64,000 nt of DNA from Thermodesulfovibrio thiophilus DSM 17215 (lineage in GTDB: Bacteria > Nitrospirota > Thermodesulfovibrionia > Thermodesulfovibrionales > Thermodesulfovibrionaceae): contig NZ_AUIU01000014.1 in the NCBI RefSeq assembly GCF_000423865.1, positions 62,001-126,000 on the forward strand, written 5' to 3'. The notes beneath the pieces are model-generated. The model searched no databases and was not told where the DNA came from. It saw only the letters and a program-made list of their open reading frames with translations. A program made the translations under genes and the position numbers. This document shows positions 14,854 through 17,151 of this stretch, piece after piece. Each line of letters opens with the position of its first letter. Position 1 is the first letter of the stretch.

Positions 14854-14880
14854 GTTCTTTTTATAGGATTATTTTCTTAA

Positions 14881-14885
14881 AGGAG
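14881..14885. repeat. IS110 junction copy of AGGAG (right end of element)
   Basis: AGGAG is shared by both element-chromosome junctions (the other copy is at 16326-16330). It contains the AG (CT on the transposase strand) that fits the core dinucleotide kept on both sides after IS110 recombination. Because the five bases are shared, the exact crossover point is ambiguous within them. Confidence 0.7.
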
Positions 14886-14906
14886 TCAACTATCAGAAAA
14901 TAGGTG

Positions 14907-16109
14907 TTAAACATGAGCCACCTCTATACTATGACAAGAAGAATGAAATTCAGGACTAAACGAAACACCCTTTCTGCAGAGGGCATGGATAACTCTTATG
15001 AGTTTATTAAGGACTGCTATGATAGCTTTCTTGAAACTTCCAAACTGCTTTTTTTTACGAAGAAAGTATTCCCTGAAGTAAGGGTTCCATTTCACAACAC
15101 CTACAGTCATCTGAAAGAGGATATTCCTCAAATAAGCGCTACCCTGTTTGCATATGCTCATCCTGGCAGTGTACTTACCAGATTGTTTTACAACTGGATC
15201 TGTGCCTGCATACTTTATAATAGACTTAGCATTTGGAAATATTTTTATGTCTCTTACTTCAGCCAGAAACAGTCCTGCAAGCTTCTCAGAGATGCCTTTT
15301 ATGGAAGAAATCAGTTTCAACTGATCATTATCTGTTTTTTGTATTTCATACATAAGCATCTGTTCAAGTTTTTCTATTCTTGGCTCCAGGAAGAAGAGTT
15401 TTTCTATGTAAAGGACAAGAGATTGTGCATAGTAGGGATCTTCAATGCCAATAGAAGTTTTTGCAGTACTGATGAGTTCATCTGGAGCAAAGGAAACTTT
15501 TCTGCCTCTTACTATAGAGTTATTGATTATTTTAGCTATCTCATTTGGTTTAGCCTTACTAAGAGTCTTAGCACATGGGTATTTAAGGAGAATATGAAGG
15601 AAGGTGTGGGAGTAAATATTAAAGGATTTTTCAGCCTCAGGGAAAAGGACACTGAGGGAGTATTTAATCTGAGTTTTGGCTTCAGCGAGTTCTTTTTTAA
15701 GTTTCTGGATAAGTCTTGCAAGACTTCTAAGATTAGACTCATCAGGAGAGGATGTAAGGAATTGAGGGTTAGAGATGGCAAAGAGGGCGATAATTTTAGC
15801 ATCTTTTTTGTCACACTTAGAGGGGTTGTTTGCAGAGATGAACTCAAAGAATCTGTGAGTTATTTTAGGATTGAGGATAAAAGTCTGGATACTGTTACTA
15901 AGAAGGAAGCAGTAAAGAGGGAGATGATATCTCCCAGAGGACTCCATTACTACAACAGGATTAGAGAGAGTGTTCAGAATACTGAGAAGTTGAGAGAATC
16001 CATCAGAGGACATAGGAAGCTGTCCAGAGTGAATGGTTTCAGCTTTTTCGTTAATGGCGCAGAAATGAAAGTCATCCTTAGAAATATCAATACCTACATA
16101 GTTTTGCAT
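14907..16109 (-). CDS. IS110-family transposase (DEDD recombinase)
   Basis: The 400-residue protein has an N-terminal RuvC-like domain with acidic residues D8 (GIDISKD), E56 (VMESSGRY), D100 and D103 (CDKKDAK). A central helical segment of about 130 residues is followed by the C-terminal Transposase_20 domain (SIKGISEKLAGLFLAEV, then KQSGKY...CKQGSAYLRN), in which S310 is the likely serine nucleophile. All catalytic positions are present, so it looks active. The ATG has GGAGG at 16117-16121. IS110 recombinases use an element-encoded bridge RNA to choose target and donor DNA. Confidence 0.93.
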   Translation of the reverse strand: MQNYVGIDISKDDFHFCAINEKAETIHSGQLPMSSDGFSQLLSILNTLSNPVVVMESSGRYHLPLYCFLLSNSIQTFILNPKITHRFFEFISANNPSKCDKKDAKIIALFAISNPQFLTSSPDESNLRSLARLIQKLKKELAEAKTQIKYSLSVLFPEAEKSFNIYSHTFLHILLKYPCAKTLSKAKPNEIAKIINNSIVRGRKVSFAPDELISTAKTSIGIEDPYYAQSLVLYIEKLFFLEPRIEKLEQMLMYEIQKTDNDQLKLISSIKGISEKLAGLFLAEVRDIKIFPNAKSIIKYAGTDPVVKQSGKYTARMSICKQGSAYLRNILFQMTVGVVKWNPYFREYFLRKKKQFGSFKKAIIAVLNKLIRVIHALCRKGVSFSPEFHSSCHSIEVAHV

Positions 16110-16140
16110 GTTGCTACCTCCTTAAAAGGTATTGAAAAGT

Positions 16141-16298
16141 TGTCCCTCACAGCATCCTCCCCTGTAGCAGGGGCTTTTGTAGCCCAACCAACTTATTGGA
16201 AGTTGAGGGACAGAGGGACATACTCCTTTGGAGGCTCACAGGCCTATAAACAATGGAGTCCTTATCCCTCTTTATTTTATAAAACTCATATCTCATTG
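16141..16298 (-). ncRNA. Candidate IS110 bridge RNA
   Basis: On the transposase strand two abutting stem-loops precede the gene. Loop 1 is closed by AGAGGGA/TCCCTCT (16265-16271 with 16212-16218), has an inner ACTCC/GGAGT stem (16255-16259 with 16222-16226) and a small AGGC/GCCT hairpin. Loop 2 is closed by a perfect 9-bp stem TGTCCCTCA/TGAGGGACA (16204-16212 with 16141-16149) and contains three small hairpins. Loop 1 holds segments matching the target DNA and loop 2 segments matching the element ends, as in IS621-type bridge RNAs. The 5' end is set by a predicted promoter and is uncertain by about ten bases. Confidence 0.7.
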
Positions 16299-16306
16299 AG
16301 AGATAT
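16288..16306 (-). other. Stem-loop near the bridge RNA 5' end
   Basis: ATATCTC and GAGATAT form a perfect 7-bp inverted repeat with a five-base loop. It overlaps the predicted -10 box, so it may be either a 5' stem-loop of the RNA (if transcription starts earlier than predicted) or a DNA element. Confidence 0.5.
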
Positions 16307-16325
16307 TTTAAACTAAATTTATTGC

Positions 16326-16330
16326 AGGAG
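16326..16330. repeat. IS110 junction copy of AGGAG (left end of element)
   Basis: This is the second copy of the junction pentamer. Together with GCC that follows, it still supplies a Shine-Dalgarno sequence (GGAGG) for the gene at 16339, so insertion kept the ribosome-binding site. Confidence 0.7.
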
Positions 16331-16338
16331 GCCAATCT

Positions 16339-17151
16339 ATGAAAAGAAGAGATGCTTTAAAAATTTTTGGTGGTATGTTAGGTGGTAGTTTACTTTTAAC
16401 AGGTAGTAGCTGGATAGCTGGTAATTTGAATGCTTCACAAACAAACAATATCCCTCCTCTACCCTGGAATTACAAATCTCTTGATTCTAAAAAAGTAGCT
16501 GAAAGAGCTTATTCAGGCTTTTACAAAGGCAGATGTTGCTATGGAGCATTTGACGGCATTATTGGATGCCTTCAAGATGAAGTTGGATTCCCATTTACAG
16601 GAATTCCAACAGAATTATTTGTATTTGGTAGAAGTGGAATAGCAGAAACTGGATCAACATGTGGAGCTTTGATTGGAGCATCTGCTGCTATTTTCCTTCT
16701 AACAGGTGGAATAGATAAGGAAAAACAGGACAGAGCATATAAGCTCATTCAGGATTTATTCCGTTTCTATGAACAGGAAGCACTCCCTAAATACATTCCA
16801 GAAAAACCGAAACTAAATGCTGAAATCAAAGCAACAGTAGCTACCTCACCTATATGTCATATCTCAGTTTCAAGATGGTGTGCACAGACTAAATTTAAAG
16901 CAGCATCAAAAGAAAGAGACGAAAGATGTGCAAGAATTACAGCAGATTGTGCGCTTTATGCTATTAAATTATTAGAAGCTGAATACAAAGGCACCTTCAA
17001 AGGAGCTTATCCTCTTAAAGCCCAAACGAAAACATGCATGAACTGCCATGAGAAAAAAGATGCTCTTAACAATACAAAAGGAAACATGGAATGTGGTACA
17101 TGTCATTTTGATGGAAGAATTAACAAAGTTACAAAACATCCTCCATATTAA
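16339..17151 (+). CDS. Split-Soret-type dihaem cytochrome c, Tat-exported
   Basis: The 270-residue protein starts with a twin-arginine signal (KRRDALKIF plus hydrophobic stretch). The N-terminal part is a C_GCAxxG_C_C-type domain (CCYGAFDG, GSTCGALIGASAA, SPICHISVSRWC) and the C-terminus has two haem c sites, CMNCH and CGTCH. This matches split-Soret cytochrome c known from Desulfovibrio, a periplasmic electron carrier whose role is unsettled. The GGAGG Shine-Dalgarno sequence is seven bases upstream, but the IS110 element immediately before it separates the gene from its sigma-54 promoter. Confidence 0.85.
   Translation: MKRRDALKIFGGMLGGSLLLTGSSWIAGNLNASQTNNIPPLPWNYKSLDSKKVAERAYSGFYKGRCCYGAFDGIIGCLQDEVGFPFTGIPTELFVFGRSGIAETGSTCGALIGASAAIFLLTGGIDKEKQDRAYKLIQDLFRFYEQEALPKYIPEKPKLNAEIKATVATSPICHISVSRWCAQTKFKAASKERDERCARITADCALYAIKLLEAEYKGTFKGAYPLKAQTKTCMNCHEKKDALNNTKGNMECGTCHFDGRINKVTKHPPY

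What the first reader, a model, noticed from the sequence alone, without database searches (positions are those of the whole stretch)
14879..16336. Target guides in loop 1 match the reconstructed pre-insertion site
Deleting the element with one AGGAG copy restores a target which, on the transposase strand, reads ATTGGC-CT-CCTTT. Loop 1 contains ATAGGCCT (16240-16247), matching ATTGGCCT at 7 of 8 positions, and on its 3' side AAAGGAG (16223-16229), the exact complement of CTCCTTT. These are in the order expected of left and right target guides. The target was derived from the junctions independently of the loop, so the agreement supports both.
Basis: partly seen in the sequence, partly recalled or inferred. 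Interest (0 to 1): 0.75.

Follow-up and report, generated by a model that had tools for sequence, protein, structure and literature searches.

The report
Jumping gene that inserts at ribosome-binding sites

Summary
The element is an IS110-group IS (core CT; 14884-16330). The quoted strings are real, and the right target guide is right: AAAGGAG (16229-16223) pairs with CTCCTTT, and across relatives the predicted and observed right targets covary (p<=5e-5). The left guide is wrong. ATAGGCCT lies mostly in the arm of a hairpin (AGGC/GCCT) paired in 16/16 relatives with compensatory changes. Thirteen copies in one relative carry the same TAGGCCT, yet their targets do not match it. The true left-guide position holds ATTGTTTAT, which fits the window target poorly. 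The pre-insertion site is a Shine-Dalgarno (SD) sequence. Relatives hit SDs too: 12 of 13 copies in one genome lie just before a start codon, and empty sites are confirmed. IS900 is a known precedent. Two further features emerged. First, the left end (CCTGC/CCTAC) rebuilds AGGAG beside the host gene. Second, SD-targeting relatives keep the whole antisense strand open: 5 antisense stops in 1109 Leu/Ser codons, against 172 in 998 for non-SD relatives. The antisense frame often ends at or just before the rebuilt SD, and many insertions lie inside operons. Best reading: a gene-sparing ribosome relay, unproven by experiment.

The parts
14884..16330 (-). IS110-group insertion sequence, counted with both copies of the 2-nt core (AG on +, CT on transposase strand: 14884-14885 and 16329-16330)
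   Evidence: Conserved ends LE CCTGCAAT and RE AGTTGA+CT in about 30 related insertions; single copy in own genome
14907..16109 (-). IS110 transposase/recombinase, 400 aa
   Evidence: PF01548 E=3.8e-30 and PF02371 E=1e-21
16130..16278 (-). bridge-RNA region of the left end: target-binding loop then donor-binding loop
   Evidence: fold z=-3.0; consensus structure with compensatory changes at 15 of 24 pairs over 16 relatives
16246..16254 (-). true left-target-guide position, ATTGTTTAT (fits the present target poorly)
   Evidence: register fixed by relatives
   Evidence: hairpin paired in 16/16 with compensatory changes; no match to targets in G191
16232..16245 (-). apical hairpin AGGC-CTGTGA-GCCT of the target-binding loop
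16223..16229 (-). right target guide AAAGGAG; pairs with core+right target CTCCTTT
   Evidence: predicted and observed right targets covary across families, p<=5e-5
16186..16193 (-). left donor guide AGTTGGTT, pairs (two G-U type pairs) with right-end AGTTGACT
   Evidence: read from sequence
16157..16162 (-). right donor guide GGGGAG, pairs with core + start of the left end (CTCCT); the following G (16156) faces the near-invariant target C before the core (handshake position)
14886..14891 (-). left donor (right-end terminus) AGTTGA; with core gives TTGACT, a -35-like hexamer at the circle junction
   Evidence: sequence; conserved in relatives
14879..14885 (+). host SD half left upstream of the element (AAAGGAG)
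   Evidence: ortholog
16326..16331 (+). regenerated SD AGGAGG: AGG from the element end, AG core, G from host
   Evidence: empty sites of relatives
16339..17151 (+). host gene whose SD was targeted (270-aa TAT-type redox protein with CxxCH motif)
14904..16316 (+). antisense open frame over almost the whole element (470 codons), ending 12 nt before the element end and 22 nt before the host gene start

Best explanation
This is an IS110-group element whose bridge RNA aims it at Shine-Dalgarno sequences, antisense to the gene. Shown: SD targeting in many related insertions, guide-target covariation on the right side, the hairpin, and the empty sites. Shown by comparison: the left end starts CCT, so strand exchange at the CT core rebuilds AGGAG beside the host gene. 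Elements that target SDs keep the full antisense strand free of stops; related elements with other targets do not. Inferred: in the host mRNA, ribosomes load at the old upstream SD, or arrive from the preceding operon gene. They then translate through the element in antisense, stop at or just before the rebuilt SD, and restart on the host gene. This would avoid polarity and make the insertion nearly neutral.
For: Targets: 12 of 13 G191 copies have CAT 3-12 nt before the core, against 18% of 523 CTCCTT sites; the G203, G185 and G186 copies and some G182 copies do the same. Right guide: covariation. Empty sites: orthologs without the element carry CCTCCTT-type SDs at the L040 and L052 sites; window ortholog. 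Hairpin and register. Antisense openness: 5/1109 Leu/Ser codons are antisense stops in 14 SD elements against 172/998 in 14 non-SD relatives, no overlap between groups; A at third position is still used in other fourfold codons; at least 2-3 label changes on the tree; 18 further loci agree. ORF end: within 15 nt of the element end in 8 of 12. Operons: in 12 of 21 insertions a co-directional ORF ends 0-36 nt upstream. No amino-acid constraint seen: fourfold sites mostly 34-41% identical between divergent pairs.
Against: No expression data. G186, G182 and L025 have an antisense frame broken or ending early (G186 by one CTA). In the window the first antisense starts (GTG 14904, ATG 14913) lie 18-27 nt from the host SD, too far for direct use, though AGGTG precedes the ATG. 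Non-SD labels fall in few clades, so the association rests on few independent changes. The window's left guide does not fit its target, so left-side specificity in this clade is weak or lost. Purifying selection against other insertions could explain part of the SD bias. The L057 empty-site orthologs have a weaker SD-like stretch.
Confidence: 0.72

Rival explanations
1. One reading: ATAGGCCT is the left guide and AAAGGAG the right guide, giving a 14-nt specific target.
For: 7/8 match, rarely reached by chance (0.6% of random targets); correct order.
Against: AGGC is a hairpin arm with compensatory changes in relatives; wrong register by 6 nt; G191 carries the same TAGGCCT but its 13 targets do not match.
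Confidence: 0.05
2. The antisense frame encodes a real protein, as proposed for the IS900 'hed' gene, and SD targeting serves to express it.
For: IS900 targets translation initiation signals and has an antisense ORF spanning the element (PMC8141618; Doran 1997 known by title only); frame open in divergent elements.
Against: Fourfold sites look saturated, so the antisense amino acids appear unconstrained; start codon position varies.
Confidence: 0.2
3. SD bias is only selection: the element hits any CTCCTT and intragenic insertions are lost.
For: The right guide alone specifies about CTCCTT; intragenic insertions are usually harmful.
Against: 12/13 in G191 beside start codons; T-rich left targets exceed native SD sites (p 0.0001-0.006); the rebuilt SD and the open antisense frame are hard to explain this way.
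Confidence: 0.2

Closest known systems
IS900 (IS110 family, Mycobacterium avium subsp. paratuberculosis)
   Same: Target motif CATGNNNNNNTCTCCTT (start codon + SD complement), antisense ORF 'hed' spanning the element without its own RBS (PMC8141618)
   Different: Different phylum; no bridge-RNA account of its targeting found in the held papers; there the antisense ORF is treated as a gene, here openness without amino-acid constraint is seen
IS621 bridge-RNA system (IS110 group)
   Same: Two-loop bridge RNA in the left end, left and right guides around a CT core, hairpin between guides, extended right guide, handshake positions (PMC11208160, PMC11208158)
   Different: IS621 target is ATCAGGCCTAC; here the fixed part is CTCC(T) read by the right guide, and in the window's clade the left guide fits loosely and has lost the core CT
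IS1111/IS110 seekRNA elements
   Same: RNA-guided DEDD transposases with specific targets (PMC11187229)
   Different: No SD targeting described in the passages found there

Membership tests
IS110 family, IS110 group | DEDD (PF01548) plus Transposase_20 (PF02371) recombinase | tested here: met
IS110 family, IS110 group | Long noncoding left end upstream of the gene, short right end | tested here: met
   219 nt and 21 nt
IS110 family, IS110 group | Two-loop structured bridge RNA in the left end | tested here: met
IS110 bridge-RNA targeting | Right guide matches core + right target | tested here: met
   7 nt exact; covariation p<=5e-5
IS110 bridge-RNA targeting | Left guide matches left target + core | tested here: not met
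   window ATTGTTTAT against GATTGGCCT, 2/9; met in wider relatives
IS110 bridge-RNA targeting | RNA expression and guide-directed recombination | not testable with these tools
   needs experiment
IS900-like SD-targeting IS110 elements | Inserts antisense between start codon and SD (CAT-N-CTCCTT) | tested here: met
IS900-like SD-targeting IS110 elements | Antisense ORF spanning the element | tested here: met
IS900-like SD-targeting IS110 elements | Sequence kinship with IS900 itself | not tested
   IS900 was not fetched

The most novel reading that the evidence does not exclude
A lineage of RNA-guided transposons has evolved a gene-sparing ribosome relay. The guide RNA carries an SD-like sequence that finds SDs, the element end rebuilds the SD, and a stop-free antisense strand lets ribosomes cross the whole element (its own guide-RNA gene included) and restart on the host gene, so operons tolerate insertion.
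Probability: 0.55. Interest if true: 0.85.

Novelty: new variant of a known kind. Interest (0 to 1): 0.66.

Why it matters
It gives a guide-RNA basis for the SD targeting long known from IS900, and a testable reason for the puzzling antisense ORF of such elements: it keeps the host transcript translated. It also shows that a single 7/8 guide match can mislead unless the guide register is fixed by relatives. If the relay is real, it is a way to place DNA inside operons without silencing downstream genes.

Tried and rejected
A second near-identical copy in the own genome: none at DNA level. Close relatives in the genus or order at DNA level: none; found instead in the Thermodesulfobacterium family. 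Full synteny of the G001 locus: absent, only the gene and its SD region align. Rfam: no hit. Promoter scan: no enrichment. Firmicutes and other plasmid relatives: no CTCC/SD flank evident by eye and, except for high-GC Geobacillus, 19-40 antisense stops, so used only as loose controls. Antisense protein with amino-acid constraint: no sign at fourfold sites. Left-guide signal within the close clade: not significant by family permutation (p=0.19), though G191 targets are richer in T than native SD sites.

Full report
What was checked. The element lies between two copies of the core dinucleotide (AG on +, 14884-14885 and 16329-16330). The quoted strings are all present. The transposase has both IS110 Pfam domains; there is one copy in the genome and no close DNA relative in 60 related genomes.

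Pre-insertion site. Removing the element gives CTTAAAGGAGGCCAATCT-ATG, an ordinary Shine-Dalgarno (SD) sequence before the gene at 16339. A same-genus genome has an ortholog of that gene preceded by TTTTCTTTAAAGGAGGAAGGAGTT-GTG. This supports the SD half of the reconstruction; the ATTGGC half is not conserved there, and the region further upstream is not syntenic.

Other insertions. A 60-63% relative in Thermodesulfobacterium thermophilum led to related genomes of its family: 13 near-identical copies in G191 (68% identity to the window protein), 6 in G203, 4 in G182, several in G185, one in G186. Nearly all sit in CTCCT on the transposase strand, antisense to the gene, usually just 3' of CAT, the start codon of the host gene. 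In G191, 12 of 13 have CAT 3-12 nt before the core, against 18% of 523 CTCCTT sites sampled from the same genome. Joined flanks of six G191 insertions were sought in 30 genomes of the family. Uninterrupted orthologous sites carry CCTCCTT-type SDs for L040 and CCTCC(T) for L052; for L057 the SD is weaker.

Guides. Sixteen related left ends align through loop 1 with only single-base indels. The consensus fold has an apical hairpin, AGGC/GCCT in the window's clade and GGGY/RCCC, GGAC/GTCC or GAGC/GCTC elsewhere, paired in 16 of 16 with compensatory changes at every pair. In the wider relatives the 9 nt just 5' of this hairpin end in the core CT and match the left target: 9/9 in L020 (GTTACCCCT) and in G182 copy L031 (ATTTTACCT). 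The average is 4.83 of 7 for own targets against 3.28 for other families' targets, p=0.0009 by permutation. In the window this position holds ATTGTTTAT, against target GATTGGCCT. G191 shares TAGGCCT, and its 13 targets match it no better than native SD sites do (p about 0.5). The 7/8 match is therefore a coincidence, though an unusual one (0.6% of random targets).

The right guide holds. The 3' side of the loop predicts CTCCTTTGG for the window (found CTCCTTTAA), CTCCTTTAA for L021 (found CTCCTTTAT), CTCCTCTAA for L019 (found CTCCTCTTT), CTCCTCTCG for G185 (one copy exact) and CTAAAGTAA for L014, a non-SD element (found CTAAAGTCG). Own beats other-family targets with p<=5e-5 within the SD group. 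The base before the target core is C in almost every insertion and faces the G after GGAG in the donor loop, as expected of a handshake position in IS621 (PMC11208158; inference here). The donor guide AGTTGGTT fits the right end AGTTGACT by sequence inspection.

SD is rebuilt. The left end begins CCTGC or CCTAC, so after strand exchange at CT the host gene is preceded by GCAGG-AG or GTAGG-AG, again an SD. The old SD also remains, upstream of the right end.

Antisense strand kept open. On the strand of the host gene the element carries one open frame of 470 codons in the window (14904-16316), in codon register with the transposase. In 14 SD-targeting elements, TTA, CTA and TCA (stops on the antisense strand) make up 5 of 1109 Leu/Ser codons. 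In 14 relatives with other targets they make up 172 of 998, with no overlap between the groups. In the SD group A is still common at the third position of other fourfold codons, so the avoidance is specific to stops. Eighteen further loci, several partial, agree; seven of the non-SD and two of the SD elements of the 14+14 come from that set. The tree needs about three label changes, at least two on well-supported branches, so the association is not one frozen accident, but independent changes are few. The frame ends within 15 nt of the element end in 8 of 12 elements; in L015, L019 and L134 the stop TAG is part of TAGGAGG itself. In 12 of 21 insertions a co-directional ORF ends 0-36 nt upstream, i.e. 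they lie inside operons. Fourfold sites are mostly 34-41% identical between divergent pairs, so the antisense amino acids themselves seem unconstrained.

Interpretation. Targeting of SDs by an IS110 element with an antisense ORF is known from IS900 (motif CATGNNNNNNTCTCCTT and hed, PMC8141618; the 1997 paper was not readable here). What is added is the guide-RNA basis, the rebuilt SD, and the tight link between SD targeting and an open antisense strand. The relay model (ribosomes cross the element in antisense and restart on the host gene, preventing polarity) is inference. It predicts expression effects that have not been measured. Searches of the held open library found no paper that makes this link; subscription literature was not searched.

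Noticed in passing
L025 (own genome, contig C17, 55849-57018): A second, 37% identical IS110 element in the same genome also targets an SD and has an antisense frame of 420 codons.
   Followed up: yes
window 16107-16123: The transposase's own start and SD read CATGTTGCTACCTCCTT on the other strand, i.e. fit the element's own target motif; self-insertion might be possible.
   Followed up: no
L138 (NZ_OY725734.1, 1563 bp): A tiny circular 'plasmid' holding only an IS110 transposase; possibly an excised IS circle recorded as a plasmid.
   Followed up: no
L055 flanks: Both flanks of this G191 insertion carry a repeat GTTGAAACCTGCCCTACTTAAAAAGGGATTGCGAC, CRISPR-repeat-like.
   Followed up: no
L031, L035, L039 (G182): Three of four G182 copies abut the same ACAGGCAAGATTGCCTGTG inverted repeat; right target CTCCAC fits their right guide.
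   Followed up: partly
L008 and L051: The same truncated insertion is shared by two genomes; a left-end-like GCAATTTTTATG occurs again at its broken end.
   Followed up: no
window 14886-14891 joined to 16328-16300 (right end/left end junction): Joining the ends would give TTGACT, a -35-like hexamer, 17 nt before TTAAAA in the window; compatible with the circle-junction promoter known for IS621.
   Followed up: partly
L123/L125 (G011): A variant right guide GCAG predicts CTGCTTCGAG; the right-end flank in the same genome reads CTGCTTCAAG, still beside a start codon.
   Followed up: partly
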